Shown: piece after piece, positions 2,043-27,410 of the stretch
Numbering within the stretch: the stretch's first letter is position 1
Layout of the letters: every line of letters begins with the position of its first letter
Origin: Alphaproteobacteria bacterium HGW-Alphaproteobacteria-7
GTDB taxonomy: Bacteria; Pseudomonadota; Alphaproteobacteria; Sphingomonadales; Sphingomonadaceae
Assembly (NCBI GenBank): GCA_002842735.1
Contig: PHEB01000001.1
Location: forward strand, 124,001 to 188,000
DNA: 64,000 bases
Direction: 5' to 3'
Translations under genes and position numbers: made by a program
Notes under the pieces: generated by a model
What the model saw: the letters and a program-made list of their open reading frames with translations, nothing else
What the model was told of the DNA's origin: nothing
The model's database searches: none

Positions 2043-2324
2043 TCACTTCTCCTTCTTCTTGTACATCGCGAGCATGCGCTGCGTGACCGCGAACCCGCCG
2101 AAAATGTTGATGCTGGCCAGAACCACCCCGAACAGGCCGAAATACTTCGCCACCGGGCTCTGCGCCTCAGCCGCCGCAATCAGCGCGCCGACGATAATCA
2201 CCGAGGAGATCGCATTGGTCACCGCCATCAGCGGCGTGTGCAGCGCCGGTGTGACCGACCAGACAACGTAATAGCCCACGAAACAGGCCAGCACGAAGAT
2301 CGAGAGGATTGAGATGAAGTCCAT
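2043..2324 (-). CDS. pntAB: NAD(P) transhydrogenase subunit alpha, transmembrane part (PntAB)
   Basis: MDFISILSIFVLACFVGYYVVWSVTPALHTPLMAVTNAISSVIIVGALIAA...; overlaps the pntB ORF. Confidence 0.92.
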   Translation of the reverse strand: MDFISILSIFVLACFVGYYVVWSVTPALHTPLMAVTNAISSVIIVGALIAAAEAQSPVAKYFGLFGVVLASINIFGGFAVTQRMLAMYKKKEK

Positions 2325-2327
2325 TGG

Positions 2328-2798
2328 TTACGCAGCCTCCCCGGCACGGGGAGGGGGACCAGCCGCAGGCTGGTGGAGGGGACTCGCCACACGCGCAACG
2401 ATGGCTTGCGCCGCGTCGCTCGCATCACGCAGCACACGCTGTGCCGAGACCCTCAAAACCCTGAACCCGTTTTCTTTCAGAAATGAAACGCGACGCTCGT
2501 CAAACTTGGCACGGTCGATGTTGTCATGCGCGCTCCCATCGACTTCCACGACGAAGCGTTCCGAAACGCAGCAGAAATCGACCACATAGGGGCCGATCGG
2601 GTGCTGTCTGCGGAACTTGTAACCGCCCGGGCGCTGCCGCAGCAATTGCCACAATGTCCGTTCCGGCAGGCTCATGTCCTTGCGCAGTTGACGTGCGAGG
2701 ATCACCTCGGGCCTTGCGACGAACCGCGAGTCCCCACCACCGCGCTGCGCGCGGTCCCCCTCCCCGTTCCGGGGAGGATTTGATGCCGCAAGGCTCAC
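2328..2798 (-). CDS. DUF559 domain protein (Vsr-like endonuclease fold)
   Basis: ARQLRKDMSLPERTLWQLLRQRPGGYKFRRQHPIGPYVVDFCCVSERFVVEVDGSAHD...DERRVSFLKENGFRVLRV is the typical DUF559 signature. GTG start overlaps pntAA stop. Confidence 0.9.
   Translation of the reverse strand: MSLAASNPPRNGEGDRAQRGGGDSRFVARPEVILARQLRKDMSLPERTLWQLLRQRPGGYKFRRQHPIGPYVVDFCCVSERFVVEVDGSAHDNIDRAKFDERRVSFLKENGFRVLRVSAQRVLRDASDAAQAIVARVASPLHQPAAGPPPRAGEAA
2336..2785. mobile_element. candidate compact cassette: ~50-bp terminal inverted repeats flanking the DUF559 gene
   Basis: Left CCTCCCCGGCACGGGGAGGGGGACCAGCCGCAGGCTGGTGGAGGGGACTCGC versus reverse complement of right CCTCCCCGGAACGGGGAGGGGGACCGCGCGCAGCGCGGTGGTGGGGACTCGC. 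Confidence 0.6.
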
Positions 2799-3916
2799 CC
2801 CAACAGCCTTTCATTCACAACCTTGCCGCCCTGCGTCAGCCGGATCGCATTGCCGATTTCCTCGTCGAGCACGGGCTTGCCCGCCTCCTTGTCCCAGAAA
2901 GCCGAAAGGAAGTTGTAGTGGTTGCGCGCGAACAGTGCCGATGCGTCGGCGGGCAGGTGCGCGGGGGTGTTGGAATAGCCGATGATTTTGACCCCGTGCT
3001 TGACCACGACCTCATCCGGCTTCGACCCTTCGACATTGCCGCCCTGCGCCACCGCAAGATCGAAGATCACGCTGCCGGGCTTCATCGTCGCGATCTGCGC
3101 ATCGGTGATGAGGCGCGGCGCAGCACGGCCCGGGATCAGCGCGGTGGTGATGACGATGTCCTGCTTGGCAATATGCGAACTCACCAGCTCGGCCTGCGCC
3201 TTCTGGTATTCCTCGCTCATTTCGGTAGCATAGCCGCCCGAACCTTCGCCTTCGATCCCGGCGACATTTTCAACGAAAATCGGTTTCGCGCCGAGCGACT
3301 GGATCTGTTCTTTGGTCGCGGAACGCACGTCGGTAGCTGAAACCTGCGCGCCCAGCCGCCGTGCGGTGGCAATCGCCTGAAGCCCCGCCACGCCCACGCC
3401 CATGATGAAGGCGCGCGCGGCCTGCACAGTGCCCGCCGCCGTCATCATCATCGGGAAGGCGCGGCCATAGGTATCCGCCGCCGCCAGCACCGCCTTGTAT
3501 CCGGCGAGGTTCGATTGTGACGACAGCACGTCCATCGACTGCGCGCGGGTGATGCGCGGCATGAACTCCATGCTCAATGCCTCAAACCCGGCCGCAGCAT
3601 AGGCATCCACCACATCGCGCCGCGTGAAAGGATCGAACAGCGCAGCCACCCACGCGCCGGGCCGCGCGCCTTTCAGCAGCGCCACGTCAGGCGCCTGAAT
3701 GCCTAGCACAATGTCGGCGTCCTTCACCGTTGCGGCAGCGGTGCCAAGGCTCGCGCCCGCTTCACCATAGGCCGCATCGGTGACAGAAGCCGTCACACCC
3801 GCCCCCTTTTCAACCGCGACATCGAGGCCCAGCGCGGCGAATTTCTTGACCGTTTCCGGCGAGGCGGCAACGCGCGTCTCACCGGGCGCGCGTTCTTTCA
3901 GGATCGCGATTTTCAC
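2795..3916 (-). CDS. pntAA: NAD(P) transhydrogenase subunit alpha part 1
   Basis: MKIAILKERAPGETRVAASPETVKKFAALGLDVAVEKGAG..., alanine dehydrogenase/PNT family. Confidence 0.95.
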   Translation of the reverse strand: MKIAILKERAPGETRVAASPETVKKFAALGLDVAVEKGAGVTASVTDAAYGEAGASLGTAAATVKDADIVLGIQAPDVALLKGARPGAWVAALFDPFTRRDVVDAYAAAGFEALSMEFMPRITRAQSMDVLSSQSNLAGYKAVLAAADTYGRAFPMMMTAAGTVQAARAFIMGVGVAGLQAIATARRLGAQVSATDVRSATKEQIQSLGAKPIFVENVAGIEGEGSGGYATEMSEEYQKAQAELVSSHIAKQDIVITTALIPGRAAPRLITDAQIATMKPGSVIFDLAVAQGGNVEGSKPDEVVVKHGVKIIGYSNTPAHLPADASALFARNHYNFLSAFWDKEAGKPVLDEEIGNAIRLTQGGKVVNERLLG

Positions 3917-23773: not shown

Positions 23774-23820
23774 TCCTGCGCGATTGACTCCGCTTGGCCG
23801 CCTCGTCAAACCTTGCGCCC

Positions 23821-25668
23821 ATGAGAGAGAACCACGCTGATTTCACCCGCCGCCAAACCCTTGCCGGGTTTGGCGGCGTTTCCGCGCTTGCGCTGCTGCC
23901 CGCCTGCGCCGCAACCAGCACCGCGCCCAATAGCGGAGCGCCGGTCGCTGGGCTTGATCCCGATGCCGCGCTCGACAGGATCGCCTACCGGATGCTCGCC
24001 CACGAACCGGGCCGCGCTACCGGGCTGGGTGTGGACACCGGCGAATATGCCGCGTGGCGATCAACCTTCGGCACGGCGGGCGAACAAGGGCGCAGCGAAT
24101 ATGCGGCCACGCTCAAGGAACTGGTCGCCGAAGCCCGCGCCTACCCCAAGGATGGCCTGACCAGCGATCAGCAGATCGGGTTTGAGGTCGTCGAAACCGC
24201 GTTTTCCAAAGCGCTTGAAGGCATGGCGATGCCCTACGGCGATGTCGCGGTCGGCAGCTGGCGCAATGCGCCCTATGTGGTGATCCAGAATGTGGGCGGC
24301 TATATTGATCTGCCGCGGTTCTTCGGTTCGACCCAGCCGTTGAATGCATCCGAAGATGTCGGCCCTTACATGGACCGCCTCGCCGAAGTTCCCGCGATCC
24401 TCGACGGAGAGCTTGACCGCATCCGCGCCGCGCGCGCCATGGGCGTGGTGCCGCCGGCCTTCCTGATCGACAAGGCGATCGCCCAGATGGAAGCGAGCAT
24501 CGCCAGCGCCAGCGATAGCTACGCCGGGCCGCTCACCGCCGCACCGTTCAACATTGGCGACTGGGCCGCACCGCAAGCCGGGCGGATCGTCGCCAACGGG
24601 ATTGTCCCCGCGCTCGAACGCCAGATTGCCGAACTCAAGGCCCAGCGCGCCGTCGCGAAGGATAGCGCCGGGATGTGGGCGCAGCCGATGGGTGAGGAAT
24701 ATTACAGCTGGGCGGTCGGCGCATCGACCACGACCGCGATGACGCCCGATGAAATCCACCGTCAGGGGCTGGCCGAACTTGACGAAATCCACGGGAAAAT
24801 GGACCCGATCCTGCGCGAAATCGGCTATACCCAAGGCACCGTGGGTGACCGGATGCGCGCGTTGTCAGACGATCCGCGTTACAAATTTGCCGAGGGCGAT
24901 CCGGGGCGCGAGGAAATCTTCGCCTTCATCAATGACCGGGTGGCGTGGATCAAATCGCAGATGCCGCGCGCGTTCAACCAACTGGTCGACCCCCCGCTCG
25001 AAATCCGCCGCCTGCCGCTCGCTGAAGAACCCGGCGCGCCGGGGGCTTACGGCGGGGCGGGCAGCAAGGATGGCTCGATTCCGGGGCGGTTCTGGATCAA
25101 CCTCAGAACCACCGATCTGCACCGCAAATATGACTTGGCCGACCTTGCCTTCCACGAATCGATCCCCGGCCACGTGTGGGAAGGCGAGTTTTCCAACCGC
25201 CTGCCGCTGATCCGATCGATCCTCGCCTTCAACGCTTTTTCCGAAGGCTGGGCGCTTTATGCCGAACAATTGGCGGATGAGCTGGGCGCTTATGATGAAT
25301 TCAAGGTCGGGCGGCTGGGCTACCTCCAATCGCTCGCCTTTCGTGCCTGCCGGTTGGTGGTGGATACCGGGCTGCACTCCAAACGCTGGACGCGCGAACA
25401 GGGGCGGCAGTTCTTTGTCGAGCGCAACGGCTCCAAGGTCGAAGAAGTGGCGAGCGAGGTTGATCGTTATTGCAGTTGGCCGGGGCAGGCCTGCGGTTAC
25501 AAGATCGGCCACAGCGAAATCGTGCGCCAACGCGCGCGGGCGCAGGCGGAACTGGGCGGCGCGTATGATTTCAAGGCGTTCAACACCGCCGTGGTGCTGG
25601 GCGGCAACGCCCCGCTGAGCGTGGTGGCGAACACGGTGAGCCGCTACATCGCGGGCGCGCGGGGGTGA
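23821..25668 (+). CDS. DUF885 family putative peptidase with Tat-like/lipoprotein leader
   Basis: MRENHADFTRRQTLAGFGGVSALALLPACA; YDLADLAFHESIPGHVWEGEFSNRL..AFSEGWALYAEQLADELG. Confidence 0.9.
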   Translation: MRENHADFTRRQTLAGFGGVSALALLPACAATSTAPNSGAPVAGLDPDAALDRIAYRMLAHEPGRATGLGVDTGEYAAWRSTFGTAGEQGRSEYAATLKELVAEARAYPKDGLTSDQQIGFEVVETAFSKALEGMAMPYGDVAVGSWRNAPYVVIQNVGGYIDLPRFFGSTQPLNASEDVGPYMDRLAEVPAILDGELDRIRAARAMGVVPPAFLIDKAIAQMEASIASASDSYAGPLTAAPFNIGDWAAPQAGRIVANGIVPALERQIAELKAQRAVAKDSAGMWAQPMGEEYYSWAVGASTTTAMTPDEIHRQGLAELDEIHGKMDPILREIGYTQGTVGDRMRALSDDPRYKFAEGDPGREEIFAFINDRVAWIKSQMPRAFNQLVDPPLEIRRLPLAEEPGAPGAYGGAGSKDGSIPGRFWINLRTTDLHRKYDLADLAFHESIPGHVWEGEFSNRLPLIRSILAFNAFSEGWALYAEQLADELGAYDEFKVGRLGYLQSLAFRACRLVVDTGLHSKRWTREQGRQFFVERNGSKVEEVASEVDRYCSWPGQACGYKIGHSEIVRQRARAQAELGGAYDFKAFNTAVVLGGNAPLSVVANTVSRYIAGARG

Positions 25669-25748
25669 TGCCGAACAAACTCTATTTCGGGGATAATCTC
25701 CACGTCCTGCGCGAACATATCGCGGATGCCAGCGTTGATCTGATTTAA
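25668..25748 (+). pseudogene. 5' remnant of type II-like DNA methyltransferase
   Basis: MPNKLYFGDNLHVLREHIADASVDLI* stops exactly where a catalytic YLDPPF motif would follow. Confidence 0.7.
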
Positions 25749-25768
25749 AAAAGGCTCGCAGAGACTTC

Positions 25769-26509
25769 ATGGGCGAACCCCTTCCTTATTCCGATTACAT
25801 CGTTTTCGCCGACGAAAGCGGTGATCATGGGCTGGACAAGATTGACCCCGAATTCCCGATGTTCGCCCTGTCCTTTTGCATGATCGAGAAGGCGGCATAC
25901 ATAAGCAGTGTTGTTCCCGCATTTCAGCAGTTCAAATTCGATTTTTGGGGCCATGACGGGGTGGTTCTTCACGAACATGAGATCCGCAAGAGGAAGGGGC
26001 CGTTCACACTTCTGCTCACCAATCCCGATTTGCGTGCCAGTTTTTATGAACGCTTGAATGGGCTGATGGCCGACACACCAATGTCCATCGTCGCGTCAGT
26101 GATCGACAAGGTTAAACTCAAGGCCAAATACGCCCAACCTTCGAACCCCTATGAAATCGCGCTTCTTTTCTGCATGGAGCGACTGCTGGGACAGTTGTTG
26201 GCAAAAGGGCAGTCGGACCGAACTGTTCACGTGCTTTTCGAGAGCCGCGGCAAACAGGAGGATGCCGACCTCGAACTGGAATTTCGCCGGATTTGCGCGA
26301 ACCAGCGCAACTGGGGTTGGAAGCAGACCGACTTCACCCAAATCCGGTTTGAGCCTGTTTTCGTGAAGAAAGCCGCTAATGCAACCGGGCTTCAGCTATC
26401 AGATCTGACTGCGAGACCGATTGCCCTACACTATCTGCGGCCCGATCAAAGCAATCGCGCCTATGATACGATCTCAACCAAGTTGCGAGCCGTGAAATGC
26501 TTCCCCTAA
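25769..26509 (+). CDS. DUF3800 domain-containing protein
   Basis: YIVFADESGDHGLDKIDPEFPMFALSFCMIEK... DESG(D) motif; C-terminal ATGLQLSDLTARPIALHYLRPDQSNRAYDTISTKLRAVKCFP. Confidence 0.85.
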   Translation: MGEPLPYSDYIVFADESGDHGLDKIDPEFPMFALSFCMIEKAAYISSVVPAFQQFKFDFWGHDGVVLHEHEIRKRKGPFTLLLTNPDLRASFYERLNGLMADTPMSIVASVIDKVKLKAKYAQPSNPYEIALLFCMERLLGQLLAKGQSDRTVHVLFESRGKQEDADLELEFRRICANQRNWGWKQTDFTQIRFEPVFVKKAANATGLQLSDLTARPIALHYLRPDQSNRAYDTISTKLRAVKCFP

Positions 26510-26535
26510 TAGCTTACGCCAACGCATAAAAACAA

Positions 26536-26631
26536 AGGGACCCCAGGTTGTCCCAGAGTCCCTATGCCGACCGGGTAGGTCCCAATCCGGCTTCTGAGAT
26601 AACATTCTTGCTGCAAATGTCAATGATAGAC
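26536..26631 (+). ncRNA. candidate structured non-coding segment 3' of DUF3800
   Basis: AGGGAC..GTCCCT, CCGGG.. and ACATT..AATGT inverted repeats over ~95 nt with no plausible CDS, up to the point where methyltransferase homology resumes. Confidence 0.35.
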
Positions 26632-27255
26632 GGCTGCGGCACCGCCGTTCACGCCGCGCAAAAACTCGGGCGGCAGTGGATCGGGATCGATGTCACCCAC
26701 CTTGCCATCGGCCTGATCGAAAAGCGGATGAAGGAAGCCTTCCCCGGCCTCGGCTTTGAAGTGGTGGGCCGTCCGCAAGACCTGAACTCCGCGCTCGATC
26801 AGGCCGCGCGCGACAAGCATCAGTTTGAACTCTGGGCGCTGTCGGTGGTCGAGGCCCAGCCGTGGAAGGGCGGGCGCAAGGGGGCCGATGGCGGGATTGA
26901 CGGGATCATCTATTTCAAGCCCGACGGCAAACGCACAGAGCGCGCTATTGTTGAGGTAAAAGGCGGCGGTGTGGGGGTGAAGGACATTGGCCGCCTTGCG
27001 CAAGTCATCGAACGCGAACGCGCGCCGTTTGGCGTGTTCCTGACCGCGCAGCCCCCAACCCGCGCGATGGAGCGCGATGCGGCGGCGGTGGGCGTGTGGG
27101 AAAACGAACTCACCGGCCGCCGCCACCCGCGCCTGCAAATCATCACACTGGCCGAATTGTTTCAGGGCAAACAGCCCGATATTCCGTGGGTCGATGCCAG
27201 CGTCGCCAAACAGGCCAAGCGTGAGGATACGAGCAAGCAGGGCAGTTTGCTGTAA
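26548..27255 (+). pseudogene. 3' remnant of DNA methyltransferase fused to restriction-endonuclease-like C-terminal domain
   Basis: Homology resumes at DGCGTAVHAAQKLGRQWIGIDVTHLAIGLIEKRMKEAF..KGADGGIDGIIYF..IVEVKGGGVGVKDIGRLAQVIERE. Confidence 0.75.
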
Positions 27256-27295
27256 CGCGCGTGCCCCCGGCTGCCCAACGGTTTGCTCTTGCTCT

Positions 27296-27400
27296 CGTCA
27301 TTGCGAGGAGCCGTAAGGCGACGCGGCAATCCATGAACTGCCGTTGCACCCAAACGCAAGGTCAGCCCATGGATTGCTTCGCCTACGGCTCGCAATGACG
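27296..27400. repeat. CGTCATTGCGAG-type palindromic repeat, copy 3
   Basis: CGTCATTGCGAGGAGCC..GCGGCAATCCATG...CATGGATTGCTTCGCCTACGGCTCGCAATGACG. Confidence 0.95.
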
Positions 27401-27410
27401 ACGAAAGCTA

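What the first reader, a model, noticed from the sequence alone, without database searches (positions are those of the whole stretch)
25668..27255. DNA methyltransferase catalytic core replaced by a DUF3800 gene
Left remnant MPNKLYFGDNLHVLREHIADASVDLI stops just before the expected YLDPPF motif. The right remnant resumes at ..GCGTAVHAAQKLGRQWIGID, just after the expected DPF of the SAM-binding motif, and runs through the intact restriction-endonuclease-like tail. Between them is a complete DUF3800 gene plus a non-coding tail. Both breakpoints fall at the most conserved methyltransferase motifs and the intervening ~250 aa are gone, so this looks like a directed replacement rather than simple insertion. 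DUF3800 (DESG motif) has unknown function, and the pattern hints at a mobile or anti-RM system.
Basis: partly seen in the sequence, partly recalled or inferred. Interest (0 to 1): 0.75.

Follow-up and report, generated by a model that had tools for sequence, protein, structure and literature searches.

The report
DUF3800–small-RNA module inside gutted methyltransferase
A compact two-part bacterial gene module, a predicted RNase-H-like nuclease plus a small structured RNA facing it, has replaced the middle of a DNA-methyltransferase gene; relatives of the module sit inside restriction operons and next to prophage repressor genes, so it is probably an uncharacterised phage-defence module.

Summary
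Confirmed. At 25668-27255 a solo methyltransferase-Mrr fusion gene is cut to its first 26 codons and its last 207, with a complete DUF3800 gene between them. Against the closest intact allele (94-97% DNA identity), 932 bp were lost and 888 bp gained. At least 73 of 78 readable relatives carry the same RNA in the same place, with strong covariation; no Rfam family covers it at its threshold. DUF3800 is predicted to have an RNase-HII-like fold. The module usually has no promoter and follows another gene: in type I restriction operons (22 of 80 loci), beside type III-like methyltransferases (5), after the CI repressor in two temperate phages, and in housekeeping operons. The methyltransferase is a replacement hotspot. 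In related genomes its core is replaced by a different DUF3800 + DUF3800-VI RNA (three genomes, same endpoints), by a complete Mrr nuclease gene, or by non-coding DNA. Endpoints differ between cargo types, and the module elsewhere sits between intact genes, so motif-directed replacement is not supported. Most likely: an RNA-controlled defence nuclease that has taken over a methyltransferase operon. Function is inferred, not shown.

The parts
23794..25668 (+). DUF885 gene, upstream operon partner; its stop codon overlaps the start of the methyltransferase remnant (TGATG)
   Evidence: PF05960 E=5e-140; sequence; same order in the intact locus of G026
25668..25748 (+). N-terminal methyltransferase remnant, 26 codons then TAA; probably acts as a translated leader for DUF3800
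   Evidence: tblastn/blastn to intact orthologues L010, L008, L169
25743..26630 (+). inserted segment (888 bp, 51.9% GC) that replaces 932 bp of the methyltransferase gene
   Evidence: junctions against intact G386; GC
25769..26509 (+). DUF3800 protein, 246 aa, motif DESGDH; predicted RNase-HII-like fold
   Evidence: PF12686; AlphaFold2 pLDDT 95.4; Foldseek best hit RNase HII 1eke
26526..26588 (-). conserved structured small RNA, convergent with DUF3800; ends in a terminator-like hairpin and U-run next to the DUF3800 stop codon
   Evidence: model R1 65.9 bits; covariation; 50-sequence alignment A3
26596..26623 (-). sigma70-like promoter for the RNA: TTGACA at 26623-26618, TATCTC at 26601-26596, 16-bp spacer
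   Evidence: sequence; promoter-like sites precede the RNA in most relatives by eye
26631..27255 (+). C-terminal methyltransferase remnant (207 aa, from GCGTAV through the Mrr_cat-like domain), open frame without a credible start
   Evidence: versus G386 4 non-synonymous and 24 synonymous differences over 150 codons

Best explanation
Shown by sequence: a compact, mobile two-gene module, a DUF3800 protein plus a convergent ~60-nt structured RNA with its own promoter, has entered the DUF885-methyltransferase operon and replaced the core of the methyltransferase gene. DUF3800 now stands as the next promoterless gene after a 26-codon leader. Predicted: DUF3800 is an RNase-H-type (RNase-HII-like) nuclease. 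Inferred: the module is a phage-defence accessory. The protein is co-expressed with a restriction operon or with a prophage repressor, and the constantly made invariant RNA binds the protein and controls it (as inhibitor, or as obligate cofactor) until infection or loss of restriction changes the balance. Inferred for the replacement: an illegitimate insertion-deletion in a gene that bacteria lose and swap readily, kept and spread because the methyltransferase operon supplies expression and its conserved ends allow recombination.
For: One RNA per module: 67 of the loci by motif plus 6 by model, at least 73 of 78 readable, with the RNA on the opposite strand next to the DUF3800 stop. In 114 genomes of the genus the only strong RNA hits are the three genomes that have this DUF3800 type. 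Covariation: 121 both-side changes against 39.5 in shuffles, 0 of 500. Fold: pLDDT 95.4, best solved match RNase HII; an RNaseH fold and ncRNA link for DUF3800 are also stated in PMC10910872. RM nesting: 22 type I and 5 type III-like of 80 loci, Pfam-confirmed on representatives. Phages JBD68 and Pkon1: the module lies directly or one small ORF after CI and carries the same RNA. No own promoter: 48 of 78 start codons lie within about 60 bp of an upstream ORF stop, 12 of them with the 4-bp overlap. Same gene replaced by other cargo in G013, G383, G177 and G362.
Against: No experiment links DUF3800 or this RNA to defence. PADLOC has no model for the window protein. Many modules sit in housekeeping operons (thrS, fabI, hisA-hisF), which does not by itself suggest defence. 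Whether the RNA inhibits, activates or is a substrate cannot be told. RM nesting is counted on the 80 nearest relatives of this protein, not on all DUF3800.
Confidence: 0.6

Rival explanations
1. Ordinary decay of a dispensable RM gene. An unrelated insertion and later deletions happened to leave the two ends; the DUF3800 module is just one of several pieces of DNA that landed there.
For: G164 has a plain internal deletion, G016 has two deletions plus non-coding DNA, G383's tail has a further in-frame loss and raised dN/dS. RM genes are often lost (general knowledge).
Against: Two DUF3800 types and an Mrr gene, all complete, in the same gene and in sense orientation, seven altered genomes in a small gene family; the window's tail shows strong purifying selection until recently.
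Confidence: 0.2
2. Site-specific, homing-like replacement: the DUF3800 nuclease with its RNA cuts methyltransferase genes and is copied into the break.
For: The DUF3800-VI cassettes of G013, G383 and G177 are only 76-81% identical to each other yet share both endpoints within about 10 bp, while the carriers' methyltransferase arms do not share a common interrupted ancestry: G383 is nearest to intact G026 and G013 to intact G372, with lineage-specific differences up to about 20 bp from the left junction. RNase-H fold.
Against: The RNA is invariant across sites and has no variable segment that could guide. The window module uses other endpoints. DUF3800-VI elements in G297 and G246 are not in methyltransferases. 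Homologous recombination of an interrupted allele, with later conversion of the arms, gives the same pattern.
Confidence: 0.1
3. The RNA and DUF3800 form a regulatory or RNA-processing pair without a defence role: DUF3800 is a ribonuclease that matures or consumes the sRNA or its targets.
For: Housekeeping contexts (thrS, fabI, hisA-hisF) and RNase-HII-like fold.
Against: Patchy distribution (18 of 114 genomes of the genus have any DUF3800, 3 have this type); plasmids, phages and RM loci are typical of accessory defence genes, not of core RNA metabolism.
Confidence: 0.2
4. Assembly chimera or misjoined contig at the junctions.
For: No read data available here.
Against: Single-copy sequence inside a 207-kb contig; an independent replacement of the same gene by another DUF3800 lies in a single-contig assembly (G383).
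Confidence: 0.02

Closest known systems
DUF3800-associated RNAs (Rfam DUF3800-I to XI, e.g. RF02915, RF02969; original report recalled as Weinberg et al. 2017, not held here)
   Same: Structured RNA consistently next to a DUF3800 gene; the second cassette type (G013, G177, G297) matches DUF3800-VI just below threshold.
   Different: The window's RNA matches none of them, nor any Rfam family at threshold. Rfam types DUF3800-VI as cis-regulatory, but here both RNA types are antisense and convergent, and the window type has its own promoter-like site.
TPR-DUF3800 protein of a Cas12a2 sub-branch (PMC10910872)
   Same: Same domain; RNaseH fold predicted there too, and the ncRNA association noted.
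   Different: Here a stand-alone 246-aa protein without TPR or CRISPR.
PrrC anticodon nuclease nested in a type I RM operon (PMC2610378)
   Same: A nuclease gene embedded in an hsd operon; in that case the linked RM enzyme silences it.
   Different: DUF3800 has an RNase-H-type fold and comes with an RNA; no ABC ATPase; no link to anticodons tested.
Type III toxin-antitoxin systems (ToxIN/AbiQ)
   Same: An RNase paired with a small RNA.
   Different: RNA is single-copy, downstream and convergent, not a repeat array upstream; different protein fold.
IscB/TnpB (OMEGA, HEARO) elements
   Same: Compact mobile unit of a RuvC/RNase-H-like nuclease plus ncRNA.
   Different: No guide-like variable segment, no terminal features, different nuclease.
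BjrC68 sRNA (RF02353)
   Same: Two-hairpin outline; 32.9 bits at 26528-26598.
   Different: Below its threshold of 39; true BjrC68 copies in Bradyrhizobium-type genomes have no DUF3800 nearby.

Membership tests
DUF3800 (PF12686) | profile match above the curated cut-off | tested here: met
   51.5 bits against 21
DUF3800 (PF12686) | invariant acidic motif DE(S)GD and RNase-H-type fold | tested here: met
   D15 E16 G18 D19 H20 invariant in 49 sequences; model pLDDT 95.4, RNase HII best match, TM about 0.43; prediction only
Rfam DUF3800-I to XI RNAs | score at or above the gathering threshold of a family | tested here: not met
   no match for the window RNA or ten relatives
DUF3800-VI RNA (second cassette in G013/G177/G297) | score at or above gathering (35 bits) | tested here: inconclusive
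   30.1, 26.6 and 28.1 bits, always in the right place and strand
BjrC68 (RF02353) | gathering score 39 bits | tested here: not met
   32.9 bits; genuine copies not linked to DUF3800
Type III toxin-antitoxin | tandem-repeat antitoxin RNA upstream of a ToxN-fold RNase | tested here: not met
   single RNA downstream and convergent; RNase-H-type fold
IscB/TnpB (OMEGA) elements | guide segment in the ncRNA that varies with the site | tested here: not met
   RNA conserved across unrelated insertion sites
RM-nested guard nuclease (PrrC-like in function) | gene embedded in a type I hsd operon | tested here: met
   22 of 80 relatives near hsdM/S/R genes; in the window itself only a broken methyltransferase
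RM-nested guard nuclease (PrrC-like in function) | silenced by the RM enzyme, released by anti-restriction | not testable with these tools
   needs experiment
RM-nested guard nuclease (PrrC-like in function) | membership of the PrrC/RloC protein family | tested here: not met
   DUF3800 profile and RNase-H-type fold instead

The most novel reading that the evidence does not exclude
DUF3800-RNA modules are a distinct kind of RM-targeting element: the nuclease with its invariant RNA recognises and replaces the core of DNA-methyltransferase genes, at fixed sites for each module type, thereby disabling one defence gene while taking over its operon for another.
Probability: 0.08. Interest if true: 0.88.

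Novelty: new variant of a known kind. Interest (0 to 1): 0.6.

Why it matters
DUF3800 is widespread and has no assigned function. Here it is tied to a new, covariation-supported RNA that faces it in nearly every relative, from Proteobacteria to Bacteroidetes, Chlorobi and Actinobacteria, and to restriction operons and prophage repressor operons. That makes its function directly testable in a laboratory strain. The repeatedly refilled methyltransferase gene also shows how defence genes can be swapped through the conserved ends of an RM gene without a transposase or integrase in sight.

Tried and rejected
(1) BjrC68 identity of the RNA: rejected. (2) A constant deletion length of about 0.92 kb as a sign of a measured cut: dropped when G016 proved to be two deletions plus non-coding DNA. 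(3) A clean empty site in Sinorhizobium meliloti pSymA: the module lies at a junction of two unrelated regions, so no empty site could be defined. (4) DUF3800-VI elements as methyltransferase-specific: G297 and G246 carry them elsewhere. (5) A DUF3800 relic inside the G016 insert: none found. (6) Solved structures by sequence: none. (7) Viral contig scan with the DUF3800 queries: the machine gave no answer three times. (8) Plasmid search for the second DUF3800 type: no match.

Full report
WHAT IS THERE. The window (Sphingomonadaceae-type genome of 2.66 Mb in 39 contigs) contains a DUF885 gene (23794-25668) followed, with TGATG overlap, by the first 26 codons of a DNA methyltransferase gene and a TAA (25668-25748). 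A complete DUF3800 gene follows at 25769-26509, then a short intergenic stretch, then the last 207 codons of the methyltransferase from 26631. The intact gene is a 540-700 aa fusion of an N4/N6 methyltransferase and an Mrr-like domain; intact copies exist in G026 (same DUF885-PEPCK locus), G386, G372 and G015. The closest intact allele (G386) is 94-97% identical at DNA level to both remnants. Against it, 932 bp are missing and 888 bp of lower-GC DNA are inserted. The tail differs from G386 by 24 synonymous and 4 non-synonymous changes over 150 codons, so the gene was under selection until recently, or the insertion is young.

THE OVERLOOKED RNA. The 'non-coding tail' encodes a structured RNA on the minus strand (26526-26588). 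It has a TTGACA-16-TATCTC promoter-like site at the right edge of the insert and a terminator-like hairpin next to the DUF3800 stop codon. Eighty related DUF3800 genes were collected from genomes of many phyla. At least 73 of 78 with readable downstream DNA have the same RNA in the same place and strand. A 50-sequence alignment gives two hairpins plus a closing GGCG/CGCU helix, with 121 both-side changes against 39.5 expected from shuffles, 0 of 500, and a clear optimum against slid pairings. No Rfam family reaches its threshold; a BjrC68 match is a look-alike. In the genus the only strong RNA hits are in the three genomes that have this DUF3800 type. The RNA does not vary with the insertion site, so it does not look like a guide.

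THE PROTEIN. AlphaFold2 on 49 sequences gives mean pLDDT 95.4. The best solved-structure matches are RNase HII, RNase H2 and RNase HI (E 7e-4 for the best, TM about 0.43). D15, E16, G18, D19, H20, E158, E164, D165 and D212 are invariant. Others have reported an RNaseH fold for DUF3800 and noted ncRNA association (PMC10910872).

WHERE RELATIVES LIVE. Of the 80 loci, 22 are near type I hsd genes (typically between hsdS and hsdR) and 5 are beside an N6_N4-type methyltransferase or helicase of a type III-like locus. Others follow thrS or fabI, or lie between hisA and hisF. For 48 of 78 the start codon lies within about 60 bp of an upstream ORF stop, 12 with a 4-bp overlap; some of those upstream frames may be spurious in GC-rich DNA. 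So the module usually borrows a promoter. In temperate phages JBD68 and Pkon1 it comes directly, or after one small ORF, behind the CI repressor, and it carries the same RNA. That is a position expressed in lysogens and typical of prophage-borne exclusion genes (established phage biology).

THE METHYLTRANSFERASE AS A REPLACEMENT SITE. In G013 (DUF885 96% identical, so the same locus in a sister species), G383 and G177 (another genus), the same gene keeps codons 1 to about 90 and resumes near codon 394 around a different DUF3800 with a DUF3800-VI-like RNA, also convergent. In G362 codons 1-20 and 500-543 flank a complete Mrr endonuclease gene. G016 has two deletions and about 0.77 kb of non-coding DNA. 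G164 has a plain deletion. The three DUF3800-VI cassettes are only 76-81% identical to each other, yet share endpoints within about 10 bp. The carriers' left arms keep lineage-specific differences to within about 20 bp of the junction (G383 to intact G026 17 differences, to carrier G013 46). This means either repeated insertion at one site, or one insertion whose arms were later overwritten by recombination with intact alleles; the data do not decide.

INTERPRETATION. Shown: a replacement; a conserved two-part module; RM and prophage contexts; recurrent refilling of this gene. Predicted: an RNase-H-type nuclease. Inferred: a defence accessory whose nuclease is controlled by the RNA, expressed from the captured operon. 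Its 'directed at conserved motifs' does not, because endpoints differ among cargo and most relatives sit between other genes. 'Anti-RM' is less likely than 'RM-associated', since neighbouring hsd genes are full-length where read.

LIMITS. No transcript data, no reads, no biochemistry. The neighbourhood counts are for the relatives nearest to this protein, not for DUF3800 as a whole. Organism names are hidden for genome handles.

Noticed in passing
L232 (G362:C1), 2122-3249: The same methyltransferase gene with its core replaced by a complete Mrr (type IV) restriction endonuclease gene; codons 1-20 and 500-543 remain.
   Followed up: partly
L227 (G177), L050 (G383), L051 (G013): A second DUF3800 type with a DUF3800-VI-like RNA sits at the same methyltransferase site in two genera, although the cassettes are only 76-81% identical.
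   Followed up: partly
L255 (Paracoccus phage Pkon1) and L256 (Pseudomonas phage JBD68): DUF3800 plus the same convergent RNA directly or one small ORF downstream of the CI repressor in temperate phages.
   Followed up: partly
L048, L049, L068: Related DUF3800-RNA modules placed right after thrS in three genomes of two genera.
   Followed up: partly
L134, L135, L153, L155, L162: Module inserted between hisA and hisF, opposite to the his genes, in several Hyphomicrobiales-type genomes.
   Followed up: no
L127, downstream of the DUF3800 gene: Two tandem copies of the RNA downstream of one DUF3800 gene.
   Followed up: no
Rfam RF02915 matches in L030, L227, L247: DUF3800-VI is typed as cis-regulatory in Rfam, but in all three loci it lies antisense and convergent behind the DUF3800 gene, which suggests an independent small RNA.
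   Followed up: partly
L009 (G016), rc positions about 727-1491: About 0.77 kb of non-coding DNA with strong hairpins replaces the methyltransferase core; no DUF3800 and no Rfam match.
   Followed up: partly
G000:C37:74835-76577 (L014, L077): The window's genome holds a second, intact but distant (about 46% identity) methyltransferase-Mrr fusion gene.
   Followed up: no
window 27295-27401: Palindrome-rich repeat just behind the methyltransferase tail, with an 83% identical copy inverted beside the G016 methyltransferase.
   Followed up: no
L082/L083 (Sinorhizobium meliloti pSymA): The module sits at a junction of two unrelated regions that are separate in other strains; the DUF3800 gene is shortened in several strains.
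   Followed up: partly
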